Of a DNA stretch of 64,000 nucleotides, positions 33,676 to 52,913 are shown piece after piece; the stretch's first letter is position 1, and each line of letters starts with the position of its first letter. This stretch comes from Selenomonas ruminantium subsp. lactilytica TAM6421 (lineage in GTDB: Bacteria > Bacillota > Negativicutes > Selenomonadales > Selenomonadaceae): assembly GCF_000284095.1 (NCBI RefSeq), contig NC_017068.1, forward strand, positions 1,116,001 to 1,180,000, read 5' to 3'. Under the pieces are notes generated by a model that was not told the origin of the DNA, searched no databases, and was given only the letters and a program-made list of their open reading frames with translations. The translations under genes were made by a program, and so were the position numbers.

Positions 33676-33957
33676 ATGGGAAAGAAAGAAAGTAAAAGAG
33701 ACAGATTCATTCGTTTAGCCGATGCCAGAACCAATAAGATAATCAATATGATCAACTTGTTGGGGAATTTGTCAAACACCAGTTCCTATGAATATACAAG
33801 TGAGGATGTAGAGCGCATATATAATACAATTTTGATAGAACTAGAAAAATCAAAGAATAGGTTTCGTATATCGGTAAAACCAAGTACATTCTCTTTATTA
33901 GCGAACGAGAATCAGAAGGTCAATCAGCTGAACATGTCAATACGAGAAGCTGATTGA
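33676..33957 (+). CDS. small helical protein ahead of the defence operon
   Basis: About 93 residues: MGKKESKRDRFIRLADARTN, then KIINMINLLGNLSNTSSYEY, TSEDVERIYNTILIELEKSK and NRF. It is charged, helical and soluble, with no membrane segment. Proteins with this RDRFIRLAEARTNK/YEYT pattern occur in Firmicutes accessory regions, to my recollection, but have no assigned function. GAGGTG (33664-33669) lies 6 bases before ATG 33676; starts at 33667 (GTG) and 33673 are also in frame. A hairpin (AAAACAG/CTGTTTT, about 33958-33977) follows. It may be an accessory or regulatory protein of the locus; this is inference. Confidence 0.65.
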   Translation: MGKKESKRDRFIRLADARTNKIINMINLLGNLSNTSSYEYTSEDVERIYNTILIELEKSKNRFRISVKPSTFSLLANENQKVNQLNMSIREAD

Positions 33958-34225
33958 AAAACAGAAAAAGCTGTTTTCTTATGAGGACGCCCCGGTAGTG
34001 CATGATATGGGAAGGTGAAATGTTACTTCTGTGCATGAAGGTAATAGCGATTTAACGGGAAGAGCAAATGTAAAAGTGGTAGACCTTGATGTATTTCCAG
34101 TCGGAGAACAGCATATCTTCCTTATAGCTGTTAAGTCAGATATGCTGATATGTTGATACATTGAGGATATGATTTTAATGAAAGTAGATTCATAGGGATG
34201 AGTCTTTGGGCGGAGGGCACTTAGT
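33958..34225 (+). other. gap with a gene remnant before the SNF2 helicase
   Basis: The first 20 bases form the hairpin AAAACAG-AAAAAG-CTGTTTT, a possible weak terminator for the small gene. From about 34021 to 34158 one plus-strand frame encodes 45 residues (VTSVHEGNSDLTGRANVKVV ... FPVGEQHIFLIAVKSDMLIC) without a normal start; it looks like the end of a decayed gene. The final bases contain GGCGGAGGGC, the ribosome binding site of the next gene. No promoter as good as the one at 33610 was seen. Confidence 0.4.
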
Positions 34226-37200
34226 ATGGAGAGATTAAGTGTAGGGATGTATGTTAGAGTTCCATATGATAGAGAGCATGCGGAAGATCCACGATTTTTC
34301 CTTCTTGGTCAGATTGCATCTATGGAAGTTGCCGGTGGACTTCTTACTGTTATTTTGCATGACCCTTTCAAGTATGCCAGATATTTCCCTGATATACCTG
34401 CAAAGTTAAGGGTAACGGTAGATTGTGTTATCCAATGTGGTGCCTGTCGGGGAGCAAGGGCTATATACAATAATCAGCTAGTTCGAGTTCTAAGCTATCA
34501 GTATGATAAAGAAAAAAGAGTTATGACATATTTCCTTGATCGGGAAGAGGATCATGCTGTGATATCAGCTTCAGAGACAAAAATACAGTTGCCGTTTGTT
34601 GCTTCGGAAATATCTCCGCTGATTCAGATGTTGCAAGGTGAATGGCAGAACCCGCGTTGGTATGTGGGAAGAACCATTGTGAGACGTGCAATCAGTTTAT
34701 TGAATGGCTCATTGAACGGATTTGGCAGATTGGCAGGCTGTAAGATCGATATTCTGCCTCACCAGATGTTGACTATTAGACGCTGTATGTTGCACGATCC
34801 TTGCCGAATATTGCTCGCTGATGAAGTTGGTATGGGCAAGACCATTGAGGCGTTGGGAGTATTGCGCTTGTTTGTGGATGCGCACCCGCACTGTCGTATT
34901 TTACTGTTGGTGCCAGAACACCTATGTGCACAGTGGCGGCTGGAGATGCTTTTCAAATTTGATCTAAGTGAAAGTAGTCAAAAATATCATTTGGTACTGA
35001 TGCCTAGTGAAAAGGTTGGCGAATGTCTTCAGGAAAAATGGGATTTTTTGGTCGCCGATGAGGTCCATCATGCTTTGCAGGACAGCCATATGTACAAAAC
35101 TCTACAGGCACTTAGTCATAGGGTCGATAATGTTCTTTTATTAAGTGCTACACCGATTCAAGCACGTGCTAAGGAGTATTTAAGGCTCTTGTGCCTTTTG
35201 GAACCTGAAGAATATGCTGCGATTCCGGAAAATGAGTTTGATAATAGAGTAACTAGACAAGCTCGTATAGAAAGGGCTGCTTTTAATGTTGGTCGTTCAT
35301 TAAAAAGTGTGCAAAACGCAGTACAGGAAGCGGATGCTCCTTGGAGTGATGAAGATGTGGCAGATGAAGCGGATGTATTGTTGAACCGCTTGCACAAGTT
35401 GCAGGGTGAATTGCCAGAAGATGAATATATAGCAGGTCAAATAAGTACGTGGCAGGAATTATTAGAGAAATTGCCGGAAAAAGGGTCGCCAGAGAATAGT
35501 GTTGACCCCTTGGGCTTAAGTAATTTGGCACAAATGCTAGGCTATATATCTGATCACTATCAATTGGATGCCCATATTATTCGTAATCGCCGCGCTATGA
35601 AAGGTGGGAAAGAGGCAAAACGTAAATTAATTCCTCTGCCGTATGATTGTGATACAAAAAATCCTTATGAGCGAGAAATATTTCAGGCTGTAGCTGAATG
35701 TTTGGAAAAATTAGTTTCGAACAACAATCCTGCCAAGTTAGTCGAGTTTGGGATACCGTTAGTGTCAGCTTGCTTCAGTTCGGCGTTTGCCCTGGATGCA
35801 TTTATTACTAAAAAAGTTTTTCCTATTGAGTGCGGATCGTCAAAGGAGTTACGGACACGAGCAAGACAGTGGTTGCAATATGAACAGCTTGTCTGTGATG
35901 ATATTGTCAAAGCAATGGATGATGAGGAGAATGGTCCAGCATCTAGAATTTGTGTTGTGCTGAAGTGTCTGGATAAGGCTGTTGGCAGACATAAAGTTGT
36001 GCTCTTCACAGAGTTCGAAGCGACCTGGGAAGCTTACCGGCATTGTTTGGAGGTATTTTTTGGTGAGGAGTGTGTGGCATTATATAGTGCCGACAGTCCG
36101 GCAGAAGAGCGTGAGCGTAATGTCTTCCGTTTTCAGAGTGACGAGTTCTGCCAGTTTTTGCTAGCAGATTCTTCAGGCGGCGAAGGACATAATTTTCAGA
36201 TGGCTGATTATGCCGTACATTTGGATTTGCCATACGATGCTGCAGTCATAGAGCAACGTATTGGTCGTCTGGATCGTCTTGGCAGACAAAGCGAAGAGCC
36301 GATTATTTCTATTGTGCCGTATGCAACTAGGACGATAGAAGAAGATTTGTTCCATATTTTCCAGGAGGGGCTTCATGTTTTCGAGAAGCCGCTGAGCGGT
36401 ATGGAAATCATTATGGGTGAATTGCGCGAGATGTTGACAAGTGCTTGGGAAAGCGATCCGGAGAGAGGATTGCGGGATATTTTACCTCAAGTCAAAGAAA
36501 AAGCCAGAAATCTAGCTAAGGCATTGCAAGAGGAACGGAACTATGATTTGAATAAATTTCTTTTTAATGGGCTGGATAGACAGGTCAGACGCTTGGTAAA
36601 TGAATATAGCCGCCAAGGTGGGAAACTGTTTGCAGATGCGATGGGCAGTTGGGCTGCTATGGCAGGCTTCCGTACAGAGCATCAACAAGGTGAATTGCTC
36701 CGATTTAGACCAGAAAACTTTTCGTCCAAGTCGGCATGGCAGACTATGCTTTTACCACCGGAATGGGGAGAATACTACCAGGATGAGCGGGCTCAGGCCT
36801 TGTTTAAGATACAAACTGCCGTTATGAGCAAGCCTGTGAGTGCGATGCGCATGCGTAGTGAACGGCCTGCTCTGGTAGGGACTTTTGACCGTAACTTGGC
36901 TCTGCAAATGGATTCTGTGCATTTCTTTGCTCCAGGAGACCCCGTATTTGATTGTATCACGGTTAATGCCTTGGATTCTTATCGTGGGCGCTGTTCTGCA
37001 TTTCGCTTGAAAGGTGAGGAAGACTGGCAGGGATTGGTTTTTTCCTATGCATTGAGACCGCATTATGAAGTGCTTTATGAACAGGGGCTGCCGGATACAC
37101 TCTGTCGTCCTTATGTACCTTTCTTGTGTTGTGAGATAAAGACGGTTTTTTGGCCATTGCCTGGCTTTCCAGAAGCTAGTCCAAATGTGCAAGCAACTTT

Positions 37201-37570
37201 CAGACATTGTTTGCAGCCTGAAGTTATGCTTGATGATAATAACTTGCTAGTGCATCTTGGCAGGAGGGATAAGGTCAAGGCAATTCCTGAGGCTGCTGCT
37301 AGGCATTTCACTAATGCACAATGGATGCAGCAGCATTTTCCTGCAGCAACATGGGTGCAGCAGGTTGCGTCGGAGGCACATAAAAAAGCTAACCGTGATT
37401 TGAGGAATAAATCACGTATTGATGAGGCAGTAGAGAAGGTCAGAGAAGAAGGGCAAGGGTATGGTAATCACACGGCGGAGGAATGTACTCAAGCGCTGAT
37501 ACAAGCACTGAAAGAGTCGAATGCGCAACTGGATTCATTAGTCTATGTTTGGATGGAGACTGAAAAATGA
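34226..37570 (+). CDS. dpdE: SNF2-type helicase, DpdE-like, first gene of the defence operon
   Basis: A 1114-residue SF2 ATPase. The N-terminal 180 residues form a beta-rich domain specific to this type (VGMYVRVPYDREHAEDPRFF). Helicase motifs follow: ADEVGMGKTIEA near 198, VADEVHHAL near 277, LLSATPIQ near 306, SSGGEGHNFQ near 649 and QRIGRLDRLGR near 677. About 400 residues follow without known domain. Size and order (with the next four genes) fit DpdE of the 7-deazaguanine DNA (Dpd) systems; DISARM DrmD is also SNF2-type and is the alternative. It starts after GGAGGG and overlaps the next gene by four bases. Codon use is more AT-rich than in the flanking core genes. Confidence 0.75.
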   Translation: MERLSVGMYVRVPYDREHAEDPRFFLLGQIASMEVAGGLLTVILHDPFKYARYFPDIPAKLRVTVDCVIQCGACRGARAIYNNQLVRVLSYQYDKEKRVMTYFLDREEDHAVISASETKIQLPFVASEISPLIQMLQGEWQNPRWYVGRTIVRRAISLLNGSLNGFGRLAGCKIDILPHQMLTIRRCMLHDPCRILLADEVGMGKTIEALGVLRLFVDAHPHCRILLLVPEHLCAQWRLEMLFKFDLSESSQKYHLVLMPSEKVGECLQEKWDFLVADEVHHALQDSHMYKTLQALSHRVDNVLLLSATPIQARAKEYLRLLCLLEPEEYAAIPENEFDNRVTRQARIERAAFNVGRSLKSVQNAVQEADAPWSDEDVADEADVLLNRLHKLQGELPEDEYIAGQISTWQELLEKLPEKGSPENSVDPLGLSNLAQMLGYISDHYQLDAHIIRNRRAMKGGKEAKRKLIPLPYDCDTKNPYEREIFQAVAECLEKLVSNNNPAKLVEFGIPLVSACFSSAFALDAFITKKVFPIECGSSKELRTRARQWLQYEQLVCDDIVKAMDDEENGPASRICVVLKCLDKAVGRHKVVLFTEFEATWEAYRHCLEVFFGEECVALYSADSPAEERERNVFRFQSDEFCQFLLADSSGGEGHNFQMADYAVHLDLPYDAAVIEQRIGRLDRLGRQSEEPIISIVPYATRTIEEDLFHIFQEGLHVFEKPLSGMEIIMGELREMLTSAWESDPERGLRDILPQVKEKARNLAKALQEERNYDLNKFLFNGLDRQVRRLVNEYSRQGGKLFADAMGSWAAMAGFRTEHQQGELLRFRPENFSSKSAWQTMLLPPEWGEYYQDERAQALFKIQTAVMSKPVSAMRMRSERPALVGTFDRNLALQMDSVHFFAPGDPVFDCITVNALDSYRGRCSAFRLKGEEDWQGLVFSYALRPHYEVLYEQGLPDTLCRPYVPFLCCEIKTVFWPLPGFPEASPNVQATFRHCLQPEVMLDDNNLLVHLGRRDKVKAIPEAAARHFTNAQWMQQHFPAATWVQQVASEAHKKANRDLRNKSRIDEAVEKVREEGQGYGNHTAEECTQALIQALKESNAQLDSLVYVWMETEK

Positions 37571-40059
37571 GCTTTCTAGAATATTTGCATTCAAGACAGG
37601 ATTTTTATAGAAACAAAAATGATCGTTATGGTGAGGCCGTTTGTGAACGCTTGATGGCTCGTTTCCCAGTTGACAATTGTTCACCCACGGCAGATTTTTA
37701 TGCTTCTTTTAGAAGTTTTCTTGGTTATGAACAACAACCAGCTGTCTTGCCGGAAAAGTGGGTTAGTGAGGAGGTTTGTCATCGTTTTGGTTTAGTCAGT
37801 TATGGTAAAGATGGCTGGGGAATTTCTAACCAATATAAGGATGAACGGCTCAATGCTGCTTTTGTCGATTGCGTCTTTCAGCACCTAAAAGCTTCAGCTG
37901 AAGATAACCAGGAATTTTGCTTGCTTACATCACCTGATATTCGTTATTTGACAGGTTATAAAGCTTACAATGGCTTATCACAGCAGCTGGCTATGGAAGC
38001 GGCACTTACTATGCAGGAGGGGGATACGGGCTTATTTTGCTTACCAACAGGTTCTGGTAAAAGTCTTATTACGCAGGCTATTGCGTATCAGAAACCTGGT
38101 CTGACTATTGCTGTAGTACCAACAGTCTCACTAGCTTTGGATCAGGTACGTTCTGCTTATAGCGCGTTGCAGGCGGCTGGAGAGGATGAGATTCTTTGTT
38201 ATTATTCGGATATGCCTGACGAGGAGTTCTCTAGGCTTTATGGGAGTCTAATGGAACAGCGTGCTCGTTTGATTTTCCTTTCGCCTGAATCGATGTTAGG
38301 AAGTTTTTATCAGGATATAAGAAACGCAGCTGAAGATGGATATTTACAGAATATTGTAGTGGATGAGGCGCATATGCTCTTGGAGTGGGGCGCATCTTTT
38401 CGCCCAGATTACCAACTCTTAAAGACTAATCAAAAAGCACTGCGTGAAATATCCTCTAGCCTAAGAACATACCTGTTATCAGCTACCTTTGATCATGAAG
38501 AGACTGATTTATTACGTGATATGTTTGCACCAGATGGTGAACACTGGCTGGAGGTGCGTTGTGATGCCTTGCGTGCTGAACCACTTTTTAACGTAATCCG
38601 CTGTGAGGATGGGGAAGATAAGAAGAAGTCAGTGCAAAGGTTGTGTGATTTACTGCCACGTCCGTTAATCGTCTATGTACGGCGTCCGTGTGAGGCAGAA
38701 TGTTTGGCTGAGAGCCTTCGTGAAAATGGCTATCGGTATGTGCGTACGTTCACGGGTGATACAACGGGGAAGGAACGATCATCGATTATTAATGATTGGC
38801 AGGAAAATCGATTGGATTTTCTGGTGGCTACATCAGCTTTTGGCATGGGAGTAGATAAGAATGATATACGTACCGTACTTCATGCCTATGTGCCGGAAAG
38901 TCCTAACGCCTACTATCAGGAAGTTGGTCGTGGTGGTCGGGATGGAAATTATTGCTTGGCGGTAATGTGTGTAAATCTTGGTAACGATGAGGATAATGAT
39001 CTTACTGGTAAAGATGGCGCGGCCGGTTTCGCTGAAGGGAAGGCCATAACGGTAGAACATTTATGTGGTCGGTGGCTGACAATGTTTGGCAAGGCGAAAA
39101 AGGGCGAAACTGAGGGCGATGTCATTTATGGGCTCAATACATTACTTGTGCCAGCTTACGCTCAGAATAAAACAACAAATGATTTACATGTACAATGGAA
39201 TATTCGCACATTGTTGCTTTTGGAACGTCAGCGTTTGCTTAGAATAGAGCATGTGGAACCGTTGGATGTTCATCGCTTTTCTTTGGTCAGGAGAACTGCT
39301 TATCGTATTTGGGTACGAATCTTGGATTCATGCCTGCTTAATTTACAGGTGACCACGGCTGAATTGGAAAATATACGTGAGCAAGAAGTTCTATATCATA
39401 AGAACAAGTACCAGAAAATGGCAACAACATTAGCAAGGATTGGTAAACGCTGTTGGTCTGATTTGTTTACTGCTACTTATGATATGGCTGATGCTTGTTG
39501 TACAGGATGTGATAAGCATCGGCAGGTGCGAAAATATTATCCTAATCAGGGGCTACCCTTACGTCAGAACGTACTGGCACAGAGAGAATACTTACCAAAA
39601 GATACTGTTGCTAACTTGTTGCAAGGGCAACGTGAAGCACTTATTACTGCGCCAAAGCATTATTGGGAGACAGCTGCTCGCTTAGCTAAAAATTGCAGAG
39701 CGTTAGTGTTGATGGACGATTTCCGTACATCATTAGGAGATCTATTGTCAGATACGCTTTGGCCTTTAATGAAAGCTAATAATCATCTATTTATTTTAGA
39801 TAGGAATGAACTGCGTCTCCTAGCAGAAGGGGGGCTGGACTGTAGTGGTTATTTGTCCGGATGTTTCTTGATATTGTATAATAACACGGCAGAAAATCTA
39901 CCACAGGCATTGCTTATGACTCGTAATCTTTTGCAACGCGTACCGGGGTGGCGGGCATTACATTTACTTTATGCTGATTGTCTAGTTCCTGGAACCGGGC
40001 GTCGCTTGACAGAACACATTACAGGCCCTGTTTATGATGAGAAGGCTTTGCCTATATGA
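37567..40059 (+). CDS. dpdF: RecQ-like DEAD/DEAH helicase, DpdF-like
   Basis: An 830-residue SF2 helicase. The N-terminal 130 residues are unassigned. Motif I is LPTGSGKSLIT near 159, motif II VVDEAHMLLEWG near 264 and motif III LLSATFDHEE near 304. The second RecA domain has SAFGMGVDKNDIRTVLH near 422 and motif VI QEVGRGGRDGNY near 451, as in RecQ. A late Cys group, ACCTGCDKH near 644, may bind zinc. It resembles DpdF of Dpd islands. Translation is coupled to the SNF2 gene (ATGA overlap). It presumably unwinds or translocates on invading DNA; this role is inference. Confidence 0.75.
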   Translation: MSFLEYLHSRQDFYRNKNDRYGEAVCERLMARFPVDNCSPTADFYASFRSFLGYEQQPAVLPEKWVSEEVCHRFGLVSYGKDGWGISNQYKDERLNAAFVDCVFQHLKASAEDNQEFCLLTSPDIRYLTGYKAYNGLSQQLAMEAALTMQEGDTGLFCLPTGSGKSLITQAIAYQKPGLTIAVVPTVSLALDQVRSAYSALQAAGEDEILCYYSDMPDEEFSRLYGSLMEQRARLIFLSPESMLGSFYQDIRNAAEDGYLQNIVVDEAHMLLEWGASFRPDYQLLKTNQKALREISSSLRTYLLSATFDHEETDLLRDMFAPDGEHWLEVRCDALRAEPLFNVIRCEDGEDKKKSVQRLCDLLPRPLIVYVRRPCEAECLAESLRENGYRYVRTFTGDTTGKERSSIINDWQENRLDFLVATSAFGMGVDKNDIRTVLHAYVPESPNAYYQEVGRGGRDGNYCLAVMCVNLGNDEDNDLTGKDGAAGFAEGKAITVEHLCGRWLTMFGKAKKGETEGDVIYGLNTLLVPAYAQNKTTNDLHVQWNIRTLLLLERQRLLRIEHVEPLDVHRFSLVRRTAYRIWVRILDSCLLNLQVTTAELENIREQEVLYHKNKYQKMATTLARIGKRCWSDLFTATYDMADACCTGCDKHRQVRKYYPNQGLPLRQNVLAQREYLPKDTVANLLQGQREALITAPKHYWETAARLAKNCRALVLMDDFRTSLGDLLSDTLWPLMKANNHLFILDRNELRLLAEGGLDCSGYLSGCFLILYNNTAENLPQALLMTRNLLQRVPGWRALHLLYADCLVPGTGRRLTEHITGPVYDEKALPI

Positions 40060-40071
40060 AAGGAGCATACT

Positions 40072-40890
40072 ATGTTCAAGAATGCTATTAGTGCTTATGC
40101 TACGCCTGTTCGTGTTTATGAGCTCTGTCGTCTGGCTGAGAAGGGAAATTGTACAAGAGATGAAGCTAAGAAAAAGTTTTGTCCTCTACCAACGGATGGA
40201 GATATGCTTGCCCCAGTCATTAGAGTAGCTATTGAGCTAGAGCTTTTAGAAGATAATCGTAACGAAATAGTGTTGACAGATACTGCTCGCTCCGGGCTGG
40301 CATTAACTTCTATGAAGAAATTTCGATGTTGGTGTAATGCCAGAGCTTTGCGTGAGAGTGAAGACCTATTCGGCCGGATTTCTGCGGTTATGTTAAGAAT
40401 TTATGATAGCCATGAAACCAGAGAAATGGTAGGAGAAAATTTTACCACTTCGCAAAGATTTCGTAATTACTTGGCTAATCATGTCAATATGGAACACATT
40501 CCTGACAATATGCGTGGATGGCGTTTCTGGGCTTCATTTTTGGGCTTAGGCTTGGTGCATGAAGCAGAAAATGGATTTAGCTTTTTGCCAAATATGTATG
40601 TTTTCTTATCTGATGCTATCCAAAATGCTAAGCTGGATGCAGGAGATTATACAATGACAGAGTTTCTGGATATACTGCAGCCTTTTCTTACGGTAGCTTT
40701 GCCTATAGAAGGTGAAGGACGTAAATTTTGTTTGGGAATGGCCAATGGTTTGCGCAGCTTACATGATAGAGGGAAGATTGTTGGGCGTCATATGCCAGAC
40801 GCCAAAGAGTATTGGGAATTGCCTGAGATGACCGGTCATACTATGCCATCGACTATTAGCCACATTAGCTTGCCAGGAGGTGTCGCATGA
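40072..40890 (+). CDS. dpdG: DpdG-like protein of unknown function
   Basis: A 272-residue soluble protein. The N-terminal 90 residues (PVRVYELCRLAEKGNCTRDE ... IRVAIELELLEDNRNEIVLT) look like a winged helix. A second helical part has FWASFLGLGLVHEAENGFSFLPN near 160. I know no enzymatic motif in it. It is named from position and length: Dpd islands carry a protein of this size between DpdF and the ATPase DpdH. AAAGGAGCATACT precedes the ATG, and it overlaps the next gene by four bases. It could be a DNA-binding or adaptor subunit (inference). Confidence 0.6.
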   Translation: MFKNAISAYATPVRVYELCRLAEKGNCTRDEAKKKFCPLPTDGDMLAPVIRVAIELELLEDNRNEIVLTDTARSGLALTSMKKFRCWCNARALRESEDLFGRISAVMLRIYDSHETREMVGENFTTSQRFRNYLANHVNMEHIPDNMRGWRFWASFLGLGLVHEAENGFSFLPNMYVFLSDAIQNAKLDAGDYTMTEFLDILQPFLTVALPIEGEGRKFCLGMANGLRSLHDRGKIVGRHMPDAKEYWELPEMTGHTMPSTISHISLPGGVA

Positions 40891-44048: not shown

Positions 44049-44719
44049 TTACGGAGGCTTTGCAGAAGACGGCTGAACTGGCTGGGCGTTGGGCAGAAGC
44101 AGATGCAGACAAGGACAAACTAGAGGATCGGAAAAGGCGTGAGCAGTTTGTAGCAGCTGGCTTTGAATGCATTTTGCAGCAAATACGCATTTTGCGCCTG
44201 CGTCAGAAATTACTACCTTTGCATTTGGAATGTCTTGATGCGCAATTATTACAGGACGTACGCGAAGTGTTGAAGGTTGGGAAGGTGGCCTATCAGAGAC
44301 AACAAGTCGGAGCAAAAAACACTTTGGGAACTGACTTAAAGAGATTCAACAAAAAATTCTCTGAAGAAATTAAGCATCATGCAGAGTGGTTCAGTCAAGA
44401 TTCTAAGGTTATAGAAACACAGCAAGCATTGGAGGTAACGAACAATCTTTGCCCAGGGGCGGTGCCTTCAAAGCTCCGATCGCGACTCATATTTGCCAGA
44501 CGTGAAAACGCTACGTTAAATGAATTACAAGATAATCTAGAGGCTCAAAAAGAAGCGGAATTGTGTTTGAAGAACTCACCTTTGGAAGCGTGGCAACGTC
44601 AGCTCTTGCAACGTATTACTGTGGGTCAGGCTACGCTTCTTAATATAACGCCGGAAGAACTGTCCTGGCTGCAAAGTAGCGATTTTGCGAAACGCGTTAA
44701 GCTACGCTACGAGTTTTAG
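44045..44719 (+). CDS. dpdI: DpdI-like helical protein
   Basis: A 224-residue, strongly helical and charged protein (AELAGRWAEADADKDKLEDR, AYQRQQVGAKNTLGTDLKRF, then long Glu/Lys/Gln helices), probably a coiled coil. No catalytic motif is visible. Its place between the large ATPase and the helicase fits DpdI. Translation is coupled to the ATPase gene by an ATGA overlap, which suggests a partner subunit. The assignment is from context rather than sequence recognition. Confidence 0.55.
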   Translation: MITEALQKTAELAGRWAEADADKDKLEDRKRREQFVAAGFECILQQIRILRLRQKLLPLHLECLDAQLLQDVREVLKVGKVAYQRQQVGAKNTLGTDLKRFNKKFSEEIKHHAEWFSQDSKVIETQQALEVTNNLCPGAVPSKLRSRLIFARRENATLNELQDNLEAQKEAELCLKNSPLEAWQRQLLQRITVGQATLLNITPEELSWLQSSDFAKRVKLRYEF

Positions 44720-44742
44720 GTTGTATATGGAGGGAAAACTGC

Positions 44743-47700
44743 ATGTCAGAGCAACCAAGAGAACAATATTTAGATTTGGTACGGCGCGAGTTGCTGGGAC
44801 CCGGGGCGGAACCGTCTTTGTTGGACGCAGAGACAGATGTTGCACATGAGCGATTGGCGGCTAATCCAAACAGGCTTTATTTGTTAGGAATTCTATATCC
44901 GCAAGATGCTAGGAAAAATACGGATGCCCCAGTGAAGAACGGCAGTAGAGAAGATGCCGAAAATTACATGGTAGATGATGTAGACGCTGAACGGGATCTT
45001 ACTGATGTTAGTGAGGATGCTCTGCTTGAAGTTACAACTGTTTCAAAGAATAGCGGTAGTGATGATGAAACAGATGATGAAACAGATGATGGGCTAGATG
45101 AAGCATTTACTATGACTGCACAATTTTTACCCGCTTCTATGGGGTTGCTTTGTCTGACAGAAGGCAGCCCGGATGGGGCACAAGTAAATATTTCTTTCGG
45201 TACATATCGTCGTGCCAAGGAAGAACTAGGAGAGTTCTGGGTTCCTTATCAGAAGCCGACAGGATTTGATATACCGGGAGAGTATGAGCCATTTTTGCAT
45301 TATGACAAGATTAAGGAGCGCTTGTACTTAGTCCAGGAGTTTTCTAAAGGTCTAAATAGAGATTTCCGTAATCAACATAAGAATCCAAAACCGGAACTAC
45401 GGGAATTTATGTGGAAAGTCAGTCGTTTAGCTATTTTTTCACGTGAAGGTCGTGTACGTATACCGAATGATTTTAGGCTGCGCCTTAATTTCGATGGGCA
45501 GGGACATTTTGAAGAAGATTTACATGGTGAGGGCGGTAAAGCCAGACTGATAGCTCGAAAACGGGAGATTACAGCAGGTCGTTTTTCCTTGACTCTTATG
45601 TTGGTGAATCTTTGTCATGATGAAAAGGGGCAGGCCGAAAACTGCCTTTACCAGGCTGAAATAAAAATGGAAGCCAGCGAAGAGGATGGCTTTCATTTTA
45701 CTGACACACGTTTTTCTGAGCCAGATTTGAGCGATACGGAAGAAGATAGTTTACGTCTGCTCTATCATGGCAAGCAAAACTATGCTACGGGGCTTGGTAC
45801 TGCAGCTGCTTGGAAAATGGATGATGAAGGATATGGCTATGTCCGCACTGATTTTTTCCCTATAGCGGAGACGCCACAGATGGATTGGGGCAGTGAGGAA
45901 CGCTCTATGAAGGACCTTTCAAGTTTATCGTCCATCTCACGCGAGAAAAAACTTGAAAGTCTGCAGAAGCTCGTATCTGCCTATGAAAGATGGATAAGTA
46001 GTCTGGAGAACAAGGCAGAGCAGTTTACAGATATACGTTTTAAGCAAGCTGCTGCTAGAAATATAGGGCTATGCCGCAAGGCGGCTCAACGTATGGCGTC
46101 AGGAATAGAAGTTTTGCGGGAAAATGATCTAGCCTTTGAGGCTTTTGAGCTTGCCAATCGTGCCATGTTTATGCAGCGTGTCCAGTTACGTATGCAAGGA
46201 GATCGTACTTGCCAAACACTAGAAGAACGTTGGCCAAGTGATAAAAAGACAGCAGCGTGGCTTCAAAATGTCGATTATGAAGCAGAGCCTGATGAGAAGG
46301 ATGGATGGCGTGCTTATTGGCGCCCCTTCCAGATTGCGTTTATTCTTATGGTTATACCTGATGCTGTTGATGATCATGCACTTGGAAGAGAGTTTGCAGA
46401 CCTTATCTGGTTCCCCACTGGTGGTGGTAAGACAGAAGCTTATTTAGGTCTTACAGCGTTTACTATCTGCTATAGACGCCTAGCACATACGGAGGCGCAG
46501 AGTGGCGGTACGACTATAATTATGCGTTATACGTTGCGACTCTTGACAGCACAGCAGTTCAATCGAGCCTCTACGCTTATTTGTGCTTTGGAGTTAATGC
46601 GTCGTGAAGGCATAGCAAAACTTGGTAATGAGTCTATTACAATAGGTTTATGGGTTGGACAAGCTACGCCTAAGAAATGCATCAAGGGTTCGTGGGAAGA
46701 TCCCAGTGCGGATATGCTTTTGAAAAAAATTAAAGATTATAGCGTGAATGTTGGTAATATCGAGGAACGTAAGGAACGGTATAATCGCTTCCAGGTCTTG
46801 AAATGTCCATGGTGTGGTACCAAGTTAGAGCGCGGTGTCGTGAGTAGTCATGGATCAAAAAAATTGGAAGGGGTCTGGGGCTATGGTTTAGACCAGGAAA
46901 ACCATTTCCATTTCTTTTGTCCGCAAAGAAAATGTCCATTTAATGATGAGTATTTCTTGCCTATTCAGGTCATAGACGAAGAAATATACAGAAATCCGCC
47001 AACACTGTTGTTTGCTACGGTTGATAAATTTGCTCAGATGCCATGGCAGAGTGATAAGGTGGGTAAGATCTTCGGTGCTGATAAGAAAGAACGTCGTGCT
47101 CCGGAACTCATTATCCAAGACGAGCTCCACCTTATTTCAGGTGCATTGGGAACAATGGTCGGACTTTACGAAGTGGCTTTGGATGCAGCTTGCCAGCATA
47201 AAGGTATCAAACCAAAGATAATTGCTTCTACGGCCACTATTCGGCGTGCTACAGAGCAATGCGCAGCACTCTATGAGCGTCAGGCTTTTCAGTTCCCCCC
47301 ACCGGGCCTTGAGTCTGGTGACTCTTTCTTTGCTAGGGAAAAGGTGGTAAGTAAGAAAAATCCAGGGCGTAAATATGTCGGCTTAATGCCTTCTGGAAAG
47401 ACCAAGACTGTATCCGAAATACGTGTATTGGCCGTTCTTTTAGAAATGGTCAAGGCTATGCCGGGCTTAAGCGATGAGGAGATGGATAAGCTTTGGACAT
47501 TAACAGCATATTTTAACAGTTTGCGTGAACTCGGTAGAGCAGATACGCTGGTGATGGATGAAGTGCGTGATGCTATGCACCGTATTTCTTTCCGTTTGGA
47601 TATACCATGTCGTAGTGTATATGGTGCAAAGGAATTAACAAGTCGCGTGACAGCTATTGAACTGAATCAGACGTTGGATGCTCTGGAACACTTAACTTAT

Positions 47701-48534
47701 TCCCAGGTTAATAGGGAACAAAAACGTTATGCTGTCAATGTACTTTTGGCTACTAATATGATTTCTGTGGGGCTTGATGTAGCTAGATTGAACTTAATGT
47801 TGGTGGTAGGTCAGCCTAAGTTGACAAGTGAATATATCCAATCTACTAGCCGTATCGGTAGACAGAGTCCCGGCGTTGCGTTAGTATTATATCGTCCGAC
47901 AAATAGCCGTGATCGTTCATATTATGAGCATTTTCAGTATTTCCACCAGACATTCTATAGCCAGGTAGAACCTAGTGTAGTAACACCGTTCTCTCGGCCG
48001 GCGTTATCTAGAGGGCTTCATGCTGTGTTAGTGTCTATGATGAGGTTGGGGAAACATACATATGAAATTTTTGCTAAGGATGATTCTGCAATAAAGTTTG
48101 ATCTTCAGAATGAGGCCATAAGGGAACAGGCCGAATGGAGTAAGAATTTCTTGGTGCGTCGTCAGCGTCGTGCCTATGAGCTAGCTCCAGGCCTTATGTC
48201 TGCTGAGGAGATGGATACTGATCTACAAGATTTGGAACAATTGATTGATGGCTTTTTCCAAGCGTGGGACGAAGAAGCAACTTATGCTAGTAAGGACGCG
48301 GTAAAGCTTTGTTTCGGGCACAGTTTCCTTTTCCGTTGGCCATCAGATGGCGAACGGATTTTACTGGCTACGCGTCAAAGGGTTCTTACACTGGCAGAAA
48401 TGAATCAAGAAAAGAGTGAACAAGCAGGACCAGCGATAGAAACCATGTCTTCCCTACGTAGTGTAGATGATGAATTGAAAGGTTCGCTGATTACTTTCCA
48501 AGAAAGGGTTGAAGGCGAGGGGACAAAATCATGA
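44743..48534 (+). CDS. drmA: DISARM helicase DrmA (DpdJ-type position)
   Basis: A 1263-residue SF2 helicase. The N-terminus (YLDLVRRELLGPGAEP ... RLYLLGILYPQ) is typical of DrmA, followed by an acidic stretch (about 70-125). Walker A is LIWFPTGGGKTEAYLGL near 553. Zinc-type cysteines are CPWCG near 688 and CPQRKC near 726. The DExH motif is IIQDELHLISGALG near 790, then ASTATIRRA near 826, and motif VI is STSRIGRQSPGVALVL near 1034. In DISARM, DrmA works with DrmB on incoming DNA. In Dpd islands the gene after DpdI is the helicase DpdJ, which could be the same family. It starts after GGAGGG and overlaps drmB by four bases. Confidence 0.82.
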   Translation: MSEQPREQYLDLVRRELLGPGAEPSLLDAETDVAHERLAANPNRLYLLGILYPQDARKNTDAPVKNGSREDAENYMVDDVDAERDLTDVSEDALLEVTTVSKNSGSDDETDDETDDGLDEAFTMTAQFLPASMGLLCLTEGSPDGAQVNISFGTYRRAKEELGEFWVPYQKPTGFDIPGEYEPFLHYDKIKERLYLVQEFSKGLNRDFRNQHKNPKPELREFMWKVSRLAIFSREGRVRIPNDFRLRLNFDGQGHFEEDLHGEGGKARLIARKREITAGRFSLTLMLVNLCHDEKGQAENCLYQAEIKMEASEEDGFHFTDTRFSEPDLSDTEEDSLRLLYHGKQNYATGLGTAAAWKMDDEGYGYVRTDFFPIAETPQMDWGSEERSMKDLSSLSSISREKKLESLQKLVSAYERWISSLENKAEQFTDIRFKQAAARNIGLCRKAAQRMASGIEVLRENDLAFEAFELANRAMFMQRVQLRMQGDRTCQTLEERWPSDKKTAAWLQNVDYEAEPDEKDGWRAYWRPFQIAFILMVIPDAVDDHALGREFADLIWFPTGGGKTEAYLGLTAFTICYRRLAHTEAQSGGTTIIMRYTLRLLTAQQFNRASTLICALELMRREGIAKLGNESITIGLWVGQATPKKCIKGSWEDPSADMLLKKIKDYSVNVGNIEERKERYNRFQVLKCPWCGTKLERGVVSSHGSKKLEGVWGYGLDQENHFHFFCPQRKCPFNDEYFLPIQVIDEEIYRNPPTLLFATVDKFAQMPWQSDKVGKIFGADKKERRAPELIIQDELHLISGALGTMVGLYEVALDAACQHKGIKPKIIASTATIRRATEQCAALYERQAFQFPPPGLESGDSFFAREKVVSKKNPGRKYVGLMPSGKTKTVSEIRVLAVLLEMVKAMPGLSDEEMDKLWTLTAYFNSLRELGRADTLVMDEVRDAMHRISFRLDIPCRSVYGAKELTSRVTAIELNQTLDALEHLTYSQVNREQKRYAVNVLLATNMISVGLDVARLNLMLVVGQPKLTSEYIQSTSRIGRQSPGVALVLYRPTNSRDRSYYEHFQYFHQTFYSQVEPSVVTPFSRPALSRGLHAVLVSMMRLGKHTYEIFAKDDSAIKFDLQNEAIREQAEWSKNFLVRRQRRAYELAPGLMSAEEMDTDLQDLEQLIDGFFQAWDEEATYASKDAVKLCFGHSFLFRWPSDGERILLATRQRVLTLAEMNQEKSEQAGPAIETMSSLRSVDDELKGSLITFQERVEGEGTKS

Positions 48535-50633
48535 ATAAGTTTAAATTTGATACGCTGCATTTGCCATCCTCCCATAAGGTCAGGTTGGCACAGGCTATTT
48601 TACAGTATGCTCCTGGTGCTATGGTAGATTTTTCGGATAGAACTTTATTGACTGCAGCACCATATACATGGCATAGCAGTATCGGAACAGACGAGAATAT
48701 ACGCCCTATCAGTGACCCTCGTTTTGCCCGTGCATTACATGTAGATGGTTTTGAGGCACCAACGCAAATCAATTATGTGCAATTTCCAGAATGGTATTTT
48801 TGCCCTGTTTGCCGCCGTTTTCAACCACTTACATCTTGGCAGGCTGAGGCCGAACGTAAGGCTAAAGGTGGAGATAATCCATACAGACAAATGCGTAACA
48901 GGGCAGCCATCAAACGAAGCTGGCAGCAAGATAATCAGGAACGTAAAGCATTTCTGCCACGTTGTAGTAACCATGACTGCCATAATAGCGAGCTTATTCC
49001 GGCTCGCATTGTGGTAGCTTGTAAACACGGACATTTGGATGATTTTCCCTGGGTCAAATGGGTGCACTACCGTAACATTGGGGGCGCTAAGGAGCCATGT
49101 TGCGAGTCGCCGGTATTGCTCTTTGAATCCGGTGGTGGTACAGAGACAGGTGAAGATATACGCATTACTTGTACTAAGTGTCATGCGGTCGCCACACTGA
49201 AAGGCGTTTTTACTGCTGATGCTTTTCAGAAGGTAAACGAAGATTTGGGCCGTGAGATATTCTACTGCAGCGGACGTTTGCCGGATTTTGGTAGTCATTC
49301 AGAATGTAATCAGATGCCGAGAGCGTTATTGCGCGGCGCGACGTCTGTGCATTTCCCTATGGTGCGTAGTTCTATGGTTATTCCGTCACAAATTAGTAGT
49401 CCGGAAATTGATATTGATGATCTTGCATACCGTTGGGAGGAATATCAAGCTCTATGTAATGAACAATATGGCAAGCCGGGAGATGAATTTACTCGCGTAG
49501 ATTCAGGTCCTTTATCAGATTATGAGAGATTCGGTAGTTTACATTTACAACAGGTCGAATTATTGGATCAGGTACGAATTGTAAGGGCTTTTTTAGGATA
49601 TTCCCGGTTACGGCCTGCGGCTCGTCGTGATGATGAAGGCTTTATCCATGCCCGTTTACCACAGGATAAAGCATACCCGGCCTATGAAGGATTTGGTGAA
49701 GGCATCTTTCTGCGCTTTGATGAGGAGGCTATCAAAGAATGGCTGGAATTAACACCGAGGGCGGCTAAACGTGCTTGGCTAGTGGAACAAAATAGACAGA
49801 AAGGTTTTTTGGCTGGCGAAAGCCATGCTCCGATTACACCTAAGTTCTTGCTTTTGCATACACTGGCACATCTACTTATTAAAGAGCTTAGCTTTGAGTG
49901 TGGTTACAACATAGCTGGACTAAATGAACGTATTTATTGCGCTGATCGTGAAGTGAATAATACTGACTTCGATATGGCGGGGATCTTCATATACGCAGCC
50001 GGTGGTGATGCAGAAGGTACTTTAGGTGGACTAATAAGGCAAGGACGTGCTGATACCTTACCTCAGATTTTCCAACGTGCATTAGCAAAAGCACGCTCAT
50101 GCTCCAATGATCCGATGTGTAGTGGAAGCCATGGTCAGGGGCAGGATGGACAGAATCTAGCCTCATGCTATGCTTGTGCCTTGTTACCAGAAACAAGTTG
50201 TGAGGAATTTAATTTGTTTCTTGATCGTGGAGTTGTTGTAGGCACGTTTGATGAGCCGGATATTGGTTTTTACAGTAATGTAGCAGCTACAAGAGCTCAA
50301 CACGCTCGTAGTAATATGGCAAAGGAACAAGTTACTGAGTGTGTGAATGTCGAGGAAAAGTCTGCTACAAAAGGCTGGGAGGCTAAGCGCGAGGAACTAC
50401 TGGAAGATGAAGCTATAGAGGCCTCGAAGCTTATGGAAAATGCAGGAGTTCCCGTACCAGATATAATTGGTGCTGAGTTACTTAATGGTCGTTGCAATGT
50501 AGAGATGATTTGGCAGAAACAGAAAATAGTGTATTTGACCTCAGAGCAAATGGATCAGGCACCGGAGCTGCTTAAGGAAGGCTGGCAGATTCTTGATTTA
50601 AGACAGCCAGTGGATGCAGGCATATTTGAGTAA
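48531..50633 (+). CDS. drmB: DISARM protein DrmB (DUF1998)
   Basis: A 700-residue zinc-rich protein. Cysteine motifs are CPVCRR near 91, PRCSNHDCHN near 145, CKHGHLDDFPW near 165 and CTKCHA near 215. The DUF1998 core has LLLHTLAHLLIKELSFECGY near 441-460, GIFIYAAGGDAEGTLGGL near 484, and a Cys cluster CSNDPMCSG ... SCYACALLPETSC near 524-560. The last 100 residues are charged and helical. DUF1998 proteins pair with a helicase; here drmA overlaps it by four bases. No nuclease motif is seen. It is the last of seven coupled genes; the next starts 33 bases on. Confidence 0.85.
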   Translation: MNKFKFDTLHLPSSHKVRLAQAILQYAPGAMVDFSDRTLLTAAPYTWHSSIGTDENIRPISDPRFARALHVDGFEAPTQINYVQFPEWYFCPVCRRFQPLTSWQAEAERKAKGGDNPYRQMRNRAAIKRSWQQDNQERKAFLPRCSNHDCHNSELIPARIVVACKHGHLDDFPWVKWVHYRNIGGAKEPCCESPVLLFESGGGTETGEDIRITCTKCHAVATLKGVFTADAFQKVNEDLGREIFYCSGRLPDFGSHSECNQMPRALLRGATSVHFPMVRSSMVIPSQISSPEIDIDDLAYRWEEYQALCNEQYGKPGDEFTRVDSGPLSDYERFGSLHLQQVELLDQVRIVRAFLGYSRLRPAARRDDEGFIHARLPQDKAYPAYEGFGEGIFLRFDEEAIKEWLELTPRAAKRAWLVEQNRQKGFLAGESHAPITPKFLLLHTLAHLLIKELSFECGYNIAGLNERIYCADREVNNTDFDMAGIFIYAAGGDAEGTLGGLIRQGRADTLPQIFQRALAKARSCSNDPMCSGSHGQGQDGQNLASCYACALLPETSCEEFNLFLDRGVVVGTFDEPDIGFYSNVAATRAQHARSNMAKEQVTECVNVEEKSATKGWEAKREELLEDEAIEASKLMENAGVPVPDIIGAELLNGRCNVEMIWQKQKIVYLTSEQMDQAPELLKEGWQILDLRQPVDAGIFE

Positions 50634-50666
50634 TAAGAGCATGCACATGGAAGGAAGTGCTGAGGA

Positions 50667-52805
50667 ATGTTTTACGGTCACCCCAATATTGTATATCCGC
50701 TCAGGGTAGATAAATTGTTGGAAGATTTGCCATCTCAGAAAATGCAAAAGAAGTTTTGGGAGACAATGGAGCAGTTTACGAAGCAACCAGGCGACCATGG
50801 CTTGAATTTTGAGGCACTGCATGGGCAAAATCTGTTCTCCATTAGGATTCAAGGCAAATATAGAGTTATTTTGTACCGAGACCCAAAGGATAACAATACC
50901 TATATGCCGGTCTATGCCGGCAATCATGATGAATCCTATGCTTGGTCTACATTCCATTGTGTTGTAGACCCGAAAACTAGTGCTATCGTCTATCATGTGG
51001 TCAAAAAAGAGAATGAAGCAACTTTGCCACAGCCTTCGGGCAATGATATATTCTGTAACGTCAAAGACGAGGATATGCATGTTCTGGGCGTCCCGGACTA
51101 TGTAATTTCTGAGGTCAGGAAATTTACGCGACTGGAAGATTTCTATGGTATGAAGAATGAAATTTCCGAGGCTTTGTATGACATCCTAGACTTTCTGTTG
51201 GAAGGTTGCACTGTGGATGAAGTCAAGGATATGCTGGGAATTACGGACTGCGCTGCTGATAAGGATACTACTATTTTACAGGCTGCTCAGACGGCCGCTA
51301 ATCAACAGCATTATAAGGTCGTTACCAATAATGCTGAATTGCATGAAGCTATGGAAGCCTCATTGGAAAAATGGCGAGTCTTTCTGCACCCGACTCAACG
51401 CAAAGCTGTGGAACGTAATTATAATGGTTCGGCCCGTGTAGTAGGCGTAGCTGGTACGGGCAAGACTGTTGTGGCTATGCACAGAGCTAAATTCTTGGCT
51501 ACACAGATGCAGAAGGGTGAGAAATTACTTTTTACAACTTATACCAAAAATCTGGCCATTGATATCGAGAATAATCTGAGAAAAATTTGCTCAGAGGAGG
51601 AGATGTCGCACATCGAGGTCAAAAATCTAGATGGTTGGGCCGCTAGTTATCTTGGTAAGCGCAAAATCATGATGCATGTTTCTGGGCAGGAACATCTCGA
51701 TAAGGTGTGGCGCAAAGCGATAGATAAGGTTCTCAGGCGTGGCGAGAACGTGCCTTTTCCTGAGCCAGAATTCTATCGAGAGGAATGGCGCCAGGTCGTG
51801 ATGGCCCTGAAGGCTACATCTCCTGATGAGGCAAGAAAGGAATATGTCCTGAGGGCTAAGAGAGATGGGCGCAAATATCGTCTAGATAGGAAAAAGCGTC
51901 TCGAAGTCTGGGCAGTTATGGATGAATACAGACAAATGACGCGCAAAGAGAAAATGTTCGATTATGATGCTATTCGCTATGAATGCCGCAGATATGTTAG
52001 TGAAGAAGAACAACCGCTGTATAAACATATTATCGTGGACGAAGGACAGGACTTCAGCATGTGCGGCTACAGGCTCCTACGAACCCTGGCTGGAAAAGAG
52101 CACCCTAATGACATCTTCATTGTTGGTGATGCTCATCAGCGCATCTATGATAATCGACCTATTCTTTCTCATTGCGGTATCTATATAAAAGGGAATAGCA
52201 CAATCCTGCGGGTAAATTACCGTACGACGGAGGAAATCCATACGCGAGCTCTGGGACTGTTGCATGGATTCAGCTTTGACGAGATGGATAACAATGCTGA
52301 ATTGAGCAGCGAACTGCTGGATGAACGTACGGCATCTCTGACACATGGCAATCAACCGGTGTTGCGCAAATGTAACGACATTGAGCAGGAGCATGGTTTC
52401 ATCATCAAAGAAGTAGGCAGACTGACCAGTGGAATTGTAGATAGTAAAGATATTTGCGTCGTGGCGCGAGGCAAGGATCAACTGCGAAAGCTCAAGAGAA
52501 GTTTGCAGAAGGCAGCTGTATCATGTTATGAATTGGATGCTAATGGTGACGATGGTGACGGCAGAAAACAGTCAGGCATAAGGCTGGCGACTATGCACCG
52601 CGTAAAGGGCCTGGAATTCGAATATATGTTCTTAATAGATCTAAATCATGGCTTGGTTCCGTTGGCAAAACGCTTAAAAGACGCGGAGAATGAGCAGGAA
52701 GCGCTGAAAGCGGAAAAGTGTTTGCTATATGTGGCTATGACCAGAGCACGGAAAGGTGTGTATCTGCTCAGTTCTGATGTGCCGTCGCCTTTTATTGTTG
52801 AGTGA
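50667..52805 (+). CDS. UvrD-family helicase with N-terminal RelE-like domain
   Basis: A 712-residue SF1 helicase. Residues about 20-95 (FWETMEQFTKQPGDHGLNFE ... NLFSIRIQGKYRVILYRD) have the RelE/YoeB-superfamily pattern of an mRNA-interferase fold. Helicase motifs: VVGVAGTGKTVVAMH near 259, HIIVDEGQDFS near 455, IVGDAHQRIYD near 488, LRVNYRTTEEI near 512, LATMHRVKGLEFEYMFLID near 635-653 and YVAMTRARKGVYLLSS near 688. No nuclease domain follows. It comes 33 bases after drmB in the same direction and has similar AT-rich codon use, so it probably belongs to the defence unit. A bidirectional hairpin follows. Confidence 0.82.
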   Translation: MFYGHPNIVYPLRVDKLLEDLPSQKMQKKFWETMEQFTKQPGDHGLNFEALHGQNLFSIRIQGKYRVILYRDPKDNNTYMPVYAGNHDESYAWSTFHCVVDPKTSAIVYHVVKKENEATLPQPSGNDIFCNVKDEDMHVLGVPDYVISEVRKFTRLEDFYGMKNEISEALYDILDFLLEGCTVDEVKDMLGITDCAADKDTTILQAAQTAANQQHYKVVTNNAELHEAMEASLEKWRVFLHPTQRKAVERNYNGSARVVGVAGTGKTVVAMHRAKFLATQMQKGEKLLFTTYTKNLAIDIENNLRKICSEEEMSHIEVKNLDGWAASYLGKRKIMMHVSGQEHLDKVWRKAIDKVLRRGENVPFPEPEFYREEWRQVVMALKATSPDEARKEYVLRAKRDGRKYRLDRKKRLEVWAVMDEYRQMTRKEKMFDYDAIRYECRRYVSEEEQPLYKHIIVDEGQDFSMCGYRLLRTLAGKEHPNDIFIVGDAHQRIYDNRPILSHCGIYIKGNSTILRVNYRTTEEIHTRALGLLHGFSFDEMDNNAELSSELLDERTASLTHGNQPVLRKCNDIEQEHGFIIKEVGRLTSGIVDSKDICVVARGKDQLRKLKRSLQKAAVSCYELDANGDDGDGRKQSGIRLATMHRVKGLEFEYMFLIDLNHGLVPLAKRLKDAENEQEALKAEKCLLYVAMTRARKGVYLLSSDVPSPFIVE

Positions 52806-52913
52806 GTTGTACGCGTCTTAAGCCTATTATAGCAGTTTGAATCGTATTTCCCTCGTAGGCGCTTTTTGTGTAGATAATTGCTTGATACTTAGAATCTTCA
52901 ATTACCATCAAAA

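What the first reader, a model, noticed from the sequence alone, without database searches (positions are those of the whole stretch)
34226..52805. Composite Dpd/DISARM-like defence operon with no modification module
Seven genes joined by ATGA overlaps or gaps under 30 bases, plus an eighth after 33 bases: SNF2 helicase, RecQ-like helicase, 272-aa protein, 1053-aa P-loop ATPase, 224-aa helical protein, DrmA helicase, DrmB DUF1998 protein and a RelE-UvrD helicase. The first five match Dpd proteins E-F-G-H-I in order and size; the next two are the DISARM core A-B. Known Dpd systems need DpdA and deazaguanine synthesis genes to mark self DNA, and DISARM carries methylases. None is present here, nor an intact PLD nuclease (DrmC/DpdK). 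A defence system with four helicases and one large ATPase, and no visible self-mark, would need another way to tell foreign DNA. I consider this the candidate novel system.
Basis: partly seen in the sequence, partly recalled or inferred. Interest (0 to 1): 0.9.

Follow-up and report, generated by a model that had tools for sequence, protein, structure and literature searches.

The report
Hybrid Dpd-DISARM defence cassette without mark
This is an intact mobile set of eight bacterial defence genes that combines parts of three known anti-phage systems but carries none of the DNA-marking genes those systems normally use to recognise their own DNA; relatives carry the same core with a sulfur-based DNA mark, so how self is told from foreign can be tested by comparison.

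Summary
Window 34226-52805 holds eight co-directional intact genes: DpdE, F, G, H, I, then DISARM DrmA-DrmB where classical loci have DpdJ, then an ArmD-like (ARMADA II) UvrD helicase. G and I, invisible to curated models, are DpdG and DpdI by profile comparison. The unit with a 96-aa leader ORF (33458-52827) is 86-96% identical in another genus, where a mutL-like protein is 70% identical: it moved as one cassette. Of 380 genomes of the window's class, four have the core with DrmAB (one a partial contig) and three have EFGHI with Dnd sulfur-marking genes. DpdA: 0/4 DrmAB genomes, 3/3 controls. DndC over cut-off: 0/4, against 6/6 sulfur-type genomes. In the two methylase families searched, the window's genome has four Type I HsdM and one Type IIG enzyme, none DISARM-type. 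In the DpdH tree the window's clade nests inside the sulfur-type group, and the DrmAB pairing needs at least two changes. Best reading: a composite system whose DrmAB gates on DNA structure rather than a covalent mark. A borrowed host mark is not excluded, and three of four DrmAB-type loci (not the window's) carry a broken gene. New variant of a known kind.

The parts
33458..52827 (+). whole transferred cassette
   Evidence: DNA shared with G654 in three blocks at 86, 94 and 96% while the adjoining flanks do not align
33610..33638 (+). promoter-like site TTGACT-17-TATAAT before the 96-aa ORF; no terminator-like site found in 33300-34500
   Evidence: consensus scan only; 7 promoter-like sites found against 5.0 expected in the stretch
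33667..33957 (+). 96-aa leader ORF, function unknown
   Evidence: 88% identical in G654, dN/dS 0.19; no Pfam or PADLOC hit; weak relatives in 13 plasmid records
34226..37570 (+). DpdE-like SNF2/RapA helicase
   Evidence: NCBIfam DpdE 3.7e-97; motifs GMGKT, DEVH, QRIGR
37567..40059 (+). DpdF-like RecQ-type helicase
   Evidence: NCBIfam DpdF 2.5e-146
40072..40890 (+). DpdG; N-terminal winged helix predicted
   Evidence: hhalign 99.7%; AlphaFold pLDDT 83.7; MarR Z 8.5 over residues 11-89
40887..44048 (+). DpdH, P-loop ATPase
   Evidence: NCBIfam DpdH 1.8e-87; GANGAGKSHLIRW and LLIEDIT in the alignment
44045..44719 (+). DpdI, helical
   Evidence: hhalign 98.2%; low-confidence all-helical model
44743..48534 (+). 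DrmA (YprA-family helicase; best NCBI model is the short form)
   Evidence: NCBIfam DrmAS 1.6e-266; solved DrmA 7s9v_A 6.9e-142
44941..45132 (+). acidic segment of DrmA (residues 67-130) at the position of the DISARM trigger loop
   Evidence: residues 67-166 align with 174-271 of 7s9v_A, weakly (11.4 bits, i-Evalue 0.39); loop is 176-232 in the Serratia protein
45190..48690 (+). tract spanning most of DrmA, 0.2-0.6% divergent from G654 against 2.6-8% elsewhere in 37190-52689
48531..50633 (+). DrmB (DUF1998/MZB)
   Evidence: NCBIfam DrmB 1.3e-106, over cut-off; solved DrmB 7s9v_B 3.6e-126 with the alignment profile
50247..50630 (+). C-terminal extension of DrmB (about residues 573-700), shared with G654 and G643, absent from L015 (G609), L166 and L167
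   Evidence: alignment; no Pfam match
50667..52805 (+). ArmD-like helicase: N-terminal RelE-superfamily-like part and UvrD core
   Evidence: 37% identity over 96% of length to plasmid helicases and 33% to the last gene of an ARMADA-II-like locus; UvrD Pfam; Gp49/HigB only sub-threshold, E 0.025 and 0.16

Best explanation
An intact, mobile, composite anti-invader system built on the Dpd restriction core. Shown by sequence: DpdE-I are joined to DrmA-DrmB, which occupy the DpdJ slot, and to an ArmD-like helicase; the unit that moved between genera contains no recognised DNA-marking gene. Inferred: E, F and the H ATPase with adaptors G and I form a DNA-engaging motor complex; DrmAB, held off by its trigger-loop-like segment, loads on DNA with a 5' single-stranded end (entering or replicating invader DNA) and drives unwinding; the ArmD-like protein processes or signals. 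Self DNA is spared mainly because intact duplex does not open the gate, so no covalent mark is needed. No nuclease is recognisable, so the effect would come from unwinding or replication block, from the RelE-like part, or from a host nuclease.
For: Homology and order. Transfer of the unit without a mark gene: 86-96% DNA identity to G654; the nine ORF products 87.5-98.8% identical against 69.5% for a mutL-like protein. Purifying selection: dN/dS 0.10-0.19 for eight of nine ORFs; 0.34 for DrmA, which has very few changes. Recurrence: four genomes, one of them seen only from DpdG to DrmB; at least two changes on the DpdH tree (AU p 6e-6 against one clade). DpdA 0/4, controls 3/3; one strong Tgt each in 10/10; DndC over cut-off 0/4 against 6/6; no C5 methylase in G000 or G654; no match to the methyltransferase of a drmD-drmA-drmB locus in G000, G643, G654. 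DISARM DrmAB binds ssDNA and 5' overhangs but not duplex (PMC9142583, passages). Deleting any of the four ARMADA II genes, armD included, abolished protection (PMC12458937).
Against: No phage or DNA-binding data exist for this cassette. The genome holds four Type I HsdM and one Type IIG methylase, so DrmAB could read a host mark; PMC9142583 reports methylation repression of DISARM. Methylase families PF01555, PF02086 and PF07669 were not searched. G643 has a C5 methylase 2.3 kb upstream of its DpdE, beside a MutH-type protein, and G609 has C5 methylases and weak hits to the DISARM methylase. Three of four DrmAB-type loci carry a broken gene. The trigger-loop correspondence rests on an 11.4-bit alignment. 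No nuclease was found.
Confidence: 0.55

Rival explanations
1. The cassette relies on a mark borrowed from the host: DrmAB (or the EFGHI core) is inhibited by methylation from a resident Type I, Type IIG or other restriction-modification system.
For: All ten genomes searched hold N6-methylase genes; in the window's genome one hsdM lies about 14 kb downstream of the cassette; G643 has a nearby C5 methylase; DISARM is repressed by methylation.
Against: The three locus-free same-genus genomes also have N6 methylases, so there is no specific co-occurrence; in G654 the PF02384 hits lie on contigs other than the cassette's, in a draft assembly; Type I marks are sparse and site-specific (general knowledge); C5 methylases are absent from G000 and G654.
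Confidence: 0.22
2. A decaying or partial system: the marking module and nuclease were lost, and the remaining genes are inert or tolerated because they are broken.
For: DpdE interrupted by a 181-bp insert with inverted terminal repeats in G654, DpdE frame-broken in G643, DpdH frame-broken in G609, whose stretch after DrmB shows a transposase-like ORF (named from its sequence) and no UvrD gene.
Against: All eight ORFs are intact in the window; dN/dS 0.10-0.19 for most; the pairing needs at least two changes on the tree; the unit moved between genera. Some breaks may be errors in draft or metagenome assemblies.
Confidence: 0.1
3. Two neighbouring systems that merely abut: a mark-less Dpd fragment and a minimal DISARM-like DrmAB, working separately.
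For: DrmAB pairs without an annotated DNA methylase in the stretch fetched (about 9 kb each side; L180 cut at the record's start; the plasmid gene tables are incomplete) occur elsewhere: 3 of 8 plasmid loci examined, L177, L178, L180.
Against: 23-bp gap I-DrmA and 4-bp overlap DrmA-DrmB; the same order E-F-G-H-I-DrmA-DrmB in the divergent G643, whose DpdH matches the window's at 29%; at least two changes on the tree.
Confidence: 0.08
4. The unit makes its own still unrecognised mark through the 96-aa ORF, DpdG, DpdI or the DrmB extension.
For: These four have no assigned enzymatic function.
Against: G is predicted to carry a winged helix and I to be helical, at low confidence; homologues of both occur in loci that have dedicated marking genes; the 96-aa ORF was not found by tblastn in G643 or G609 (G609's contig ends before that region).
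Confidence: 0.05

Closest known systems
Dpd (7-deazapurine in DNA) system
   Same: DpdE, F, G, H, I in the same order and similar sizes; a YprA-family helicase follows I
   Different: no DpdA, DpdB, Que genes, DpdK or DpdD in the window; DrmA-DrmB in the DpdJ slot; E, F and H score below NCBI's cut-offs
DISARM
   Same: DrmA-DrmB core, homologous to the solved complex 7s9v
   Different: no methyltransferase or DrmC in the unit; five Dpd genes instead
ARMADA type II (PMC12458937)
   Same: last gene is ArmD-like
   Different: no PglX-like methylase, no single-chain YprA helicase; a DpdE-like protein is the SNF2 helicase
BRIGADE (PMC12458937)
   Same: a hybrid between Dpd and another YprA lineage
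   Different: BRIGADE is described only from halophilic archaea, with a deazaguanine cluster and an ARMADA-like helicase; neither is seen here
EFGHI + Dnd loci found here (G629, G534, G528, Moorella stamsii L017)
   Same: closest DpdH relatives outside the DrmAB type; same EFGHI order
   Different: carry Dnd phosphorothioation genes, a UvrD-type helicase (NERD-UvrD where tested, G534) and a large protein with a sub-threshold AddB match; no DrmAB in the stretches held

Membership tests
Dpd | DpdA transglycosylase for DNA | tested here: not met
   profile A6: 0 of 4 DrmAB-type genomes, 3 of 3 controls
Dpd | preQ0 genes (QueC/D/E) beside the locus | tested here: not met
   no hit among the window's ORFs of 80 aa or more; host tRNA-queuosine genes elsewhere were not searched
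Dpd | DpdE-F-G-H-I core | tested here: met
   (E, F, H under NCBI's equivalog cut-offs)
Dpd | DpdJ, DpdK, DpdD | tested here: not met
   DrmA, a distant relative of DpdJ, stands with DrmB in the DpdJ slot
DISARM | DrmA and DrmB | tested here: met
   (DrmA 887.5 bits, just under NCBI's cut-off of 950; DrmB over its own)
DISARM | own methyltransferase (DrmMI or DrmMII) | tested here: not met
   none among the eight proteins; no C5 methylase in G000; its PF02384 methylases are HsdM or Type IIG; no match to the methyltransferase of a drmD-drmA-drmB locus in G000. Other methylase families not searched genome-wide
DISARM | DrmC PLD nuclease | tested here: not met
   no PLD Pfam hit in the eight proteins; reported dispensable in DISARM
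ARMADA II | RelE-GajB-like ArmD | tested here: met
   33% identity over 98-99% of length to the last gene of an ARMADA-II-like locus; the RelE part has only sub-threshold Pfam support
ARMADA II | PglX-like methylase and fused YprA-nuclease | tested here: not met
   no methylase among the eight proteins; YprA module split into DrmA and DrmB
Dnd/PT systems | DndC sulfurtransferase | tested here: not met
   0 of 4 DrmAB-type genomes over cut-off (G609 one weak hit, 32 bits), 6 of 6 PT-type
any anti-phage system | shown protection against phage | not testable with these tools

The most novel reading that the evidence does not exclude
The Dpd E-I core is a mark-agnostic restriction engine: nature runs it with deazaguanine, with phosphorothioate, and here with no mark at all, because a DrmAB gate that reads DNA structure replaces the marking module. 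The window's cassette would be the first mark-free member of this engine, evolved from a phosphorothioate-marked ancestor.
Probability: 0.42. Interest if true: 0.8.

Novelty: new variant of a known kind. Interest (0 to 1): 0.6.

Why it matters
How large helicase-based systems (DISARM, Dpd, Druantia, ARMADA) tell self from foreign DNA is an open question. Here one core occurs in three natural versions: with deazaguanine genes, with phosphorothioation genes, and with DrmAB and no recognised mark. Relatives differ in the swapped module (besides sequence divergence), so 'is the mark needed?' becomes a comparison that can be run. The EFGHI-Dnd pairing also looks unreported as far as searched: no held paper has both DndC and DpdH, and a term search of the phosphorothioate survey PMC10853773 finds no 'Dpd' in its main text.

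Tried and rejected
DpdH in viral contigs: nothing confirmed. Phage records: one, with an alphaproteobacterial-type locus. Plasmids: DpdF in 10 records at E<=1e-40 and DrmA in 85; none of the 10 is among the 40 DrmA rows listed (45 rows unseen), and in the 7 of 10 neighbourhoods fetched no ORF has DrmA as best match. PDB sequence searches with the H, G and I profiles found no convincing relative; Foldseek with the DpdG model gave nothing at E<=0.001; the second look gave mostly winged-helix matches for residues 8-90. The AlphaFold model of DpdI is poor (pLDDT 61) and was not searched. I considered the DrmB extension as a degenerate Vsr-like nuclease from its look alone; no Pfam match, so not claimed. 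I considered the PLD-domain ORF at 30793-31461 as the nuclease; it lies outside the unit shared with G654, so rejected as a member. One mutL-like gene (named from its sequence) was the only yardstick of host divergence. The careful 30-row DpdH tree did not finish (quick tree used); the one-clade test for DpdF did not finish. Rows dropped: G671 (E 4e-5, no EFGHI context); G357, G052 and G1047 (short weak hits). Paper searches that gave nothing on this pairing.
Full report
WHAT IS THERE. Eight co-directional ORFs run from 34226 to 52805 with gaps of -4, +12, -4, -4, +23, -4 and +33 bp. Curated models name E (DpdE), F (DpdF), H (DpdH), DrmA and DrmB with E-values from 1.8e-87 to 1.6e-266; only DrmB passes NCBI's cut-off. 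G and I match no model at E<=0.01. Profile-profile comparison of eight G proteins from window-like loci with eleven from classical loci gives 99.7% probability, and six I proteins against ten give 98.2%; so they are DpdG and DpdI. AlphaFold gives G an N-terminal winged helix and I a low-confidence helical model. The last protein is 37% identical over 96% of its length to plasmid helicases, and 33% to the last gene of a Haematobacter locus whose order (helicase, N-6 methylase, hypothetical, 2.1-kaa helicase, UvrD) resembles that described for ARMADA II (PMC12458937: I saw the outline, the text up to the start of the Methods, and the legends). Its RelE label rests on that paper's description of ArmD and on sub-threshold Gp49/HigB matches.

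THE HOST. The close relatives L014 and L015 are titled Selenomonas sp. and Selenomonadaceae bacterium; they are G654 and G609, which are 'same family' as the window (contig lengths agree). So the host is a member of the Selenomonadaceae, class Negativicutes.

THE UNIT. Window 33458-52827 aligns with G654, a genome of another genus of the family, in three blocks at 86, 94 and 96% DNA identity, while the adjoining flanks do not align. A mutL-like protein elsewhere in the two stretches (named from its sequence) is 69.5% identical with dS 1.5, against dS of 0.13-0.28 for eight cassette ORFs and 0.016 for DrmA. So the unit, with its 96-aa leader ORF, was exchanged recently between lineages, and it contains no recognised marking gene. 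In G654 an integrase-like ORF (named from its sequence; no family search run) starts about 0.33 kb after the last gene. A promoter-like site precedes the 96-aa ORF and no terminator-like site was found in 33300-34500 (consensus matches only). dN/dS is 0.10-0.19 for eight of nine ORFs.

DRMA. DrmA and DrmB are homologues of the solved DISARM complex. Residues 67-166, whose first part is acidic, align weakly (11.4 bits) with residues 174-271 of the solved DrmA, which include the trigger loop 176-232. A 3.5-kb tract covering most of DrmA is 0.2-0.6% divergent from G654 while the rest of 37190-52689 is 2.6-8%: DrmA has been exchanged or homogenised separately.

RELATIVES. A scan of 380 genomes of the class with the window's DpdH gave 8 with a match; one (G671) was weak and without EFGHI context. 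Four have the core with DrmA+DrmB: the window, G654, G643 and G609 (contig seen only from part of DpdG to DrmB). G643 is divergent (DpdH 29%) and ends with a NERD-UvrD protein; its DrmA, DrmB, DpdH and DpdF match the same NCBI models. Three others (G629, G534, G528) have EFGHI preceded by a UvrD-type gene and a large protein (a 362-aa ORF in G528), followed by Dnd genes. Tested identities: DndC, D, E and A on G629 (A under its cut-off) and DndB on G534; NERD-UvrD and a sub-threshold AddB match on G534. In G528 I saw only DndC- and DndD-like ORFs. Moorella stamsii (L017) has the same layout by its sequences. DndC reached its cut-off in 6 of 6 such genomes (G629, G534, G528, G764 = L017, G765 = L016, G766 = L018) and in 0 of 4 DrmAB-type genomes; G609 had one weak hit. 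DndC adjoins EFGHI in G629, G534, G528 and G764, lies on the same contig but upstream in G766, and is on another contig than L016's match could show in G765. Of the 80 loci kept from 196 relatives in the GTDB scan, 2 carry DrmA (L014, L015), 42 DpdJ, 16 the alphaproteobacterial helicase, and 20 show none in the stretch held; that scan used one peptide pattern, so it misses divergent members. Rarity: of 398 phylum genomes only the window's own has a solid DpdH; two further draws of 398 gave only their centre genomes (the draws overlap).

HISTORY. In the DpdH tree the window, G654 and G609 form a clade (100) beside G534, L016, G629 and G528 and inside the Dnd-type group, while G643 falls outside; holding the four DrmAB rows together is rejected (p-AU 6e-6), with long branches in play and a quick tree. 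The DpdF tree (without G609) gives the same picture; its test did not finish. So the tree needs at least two changes, most simply two joinings of EFGHI with DrmAB, and the window's branch probably descends from Dnd-marked ancestors. Direction is inference: the counts cannot tell gain from loss.

MARKS. DpdA profile: 0 of 4 DrmAB-type genomes, 3 of 3 controls. TGT family: one strong match in each of 10 genomes; true DpdA proteins score only 31-37 bits against that family, which is why the DpdA profile was used. C5 methylases: none in G000 or G654, four matches in G609, one in G643, 2.3 kb upstream of its DpdE and beside a MutH-type protein. N6 methylases (PF02384): in all 10 genomes searched, locus-free ones included; the five in G000 are four Type I HsdM and one Type IIG by PADLOC. 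The methyltransferase of a drmD-drmA-drmB plasmid locus found nothing in G000, G643 or G654 and weak partial hits in G609. PF01555, PF02086 and PF07669 were not searched. A borrowed host mark therefore remains open.

MECHANISM. Shown: parts, order, motifs, selection, exchange as a unit, absence of the named marking genes. From the literature: DISARM DrmAB binds ssDNA and 5' overhangs, not duplex; its PLD nuclease is dispensable; methylation represses it (PMC9142583, passages only); all four ARMADA II genes are required and cells stay intact (PMC12458937). Inferred: DrmAB replaces DpdJ and also supplies a structure-based gate, so the marking module could be dropped; EFGHI acts as motor and sensor. 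No recognisable nuclease is present, which is unexplained.

AGAINST. Three of four DrmAB-type loci have a broken gene: DpdE in G654 (a 181-bp insert with inverted terminal repeats), DpdE in G643, DpdH in G609, whose contig also shows no UvrD gene after DrmB. G528, a Dnd-type locus, has a split DpdH too. This may reflect assembly error, decay, or the cost of a system without a mark. The 96-aa ORF was found only in the window and G654 among the loci held.

KNOWN OR NEW. Bell et al. [quoted passage not shown] I found no description of EFGHI with DrmAB or with Dnd in the search listings, in passages of PMC12839542, PMC11888242 and PMC10925250, or in term searches of PMC10853773; most subscription papers are not held. 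I file it as a new variant of a known kind, a member of neither Dpd nor DISARM, since a defining feature of each was tested and not met.

Noticed in passing
window 45190-48690: Most of DrmA is 0.2-0.6% divergent from G654 while the rest of the compared cassette is 2.6-8% divergent: recent exchange or homogenisation of DrmA alone.
   Followed up: partly
G629, G534, G528 (L109-L114), L017: EFGHI joined to Dnd phosphorothioation genes, with a UvrD-type gene and a large weakly AddB-like protein and no YprA helicase in the stretch held: apparently an undescribed phosphorothioate-linked restriction module.
   Followed up: partly
L009, L023-L030 and similar alphaproteobacterial loci: F-G-H-I without a DpdE hit, with a 2.1-kaa helicase-like protein and a partner on the opposite strand; several of these loci also show DpdA, two DpdB and Que genes.
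   Followed up: no
L006 (Paenibacillus plasmid pART37): Dpd-like locus with two DpdJ genes, DpdK, a divergent TGT and a UvrD helicase.
   Followed up: no
G654, DpdE gene (L014 6123-6303): 181-bp insert bounded by 11-bp inverted repeats, MITE-like, breaks DpdE.
   Followed up: partly
window 30275-31648: Small SAM methyltransferase, single-PLD-domain ORF and a possibly frame-broken neighbour upstream of the cassette; not shared with G654.
   Followed up: partly
window 53014-54254: Transposase pieces (rve domain plus small ORFs that look IS3-like, by recall) shortly after the cassette.
   Followed up: no
window 54751-55230: DUF3990 protein with a weak ADP-ribosyltransferase-like match.
   Followed up: no
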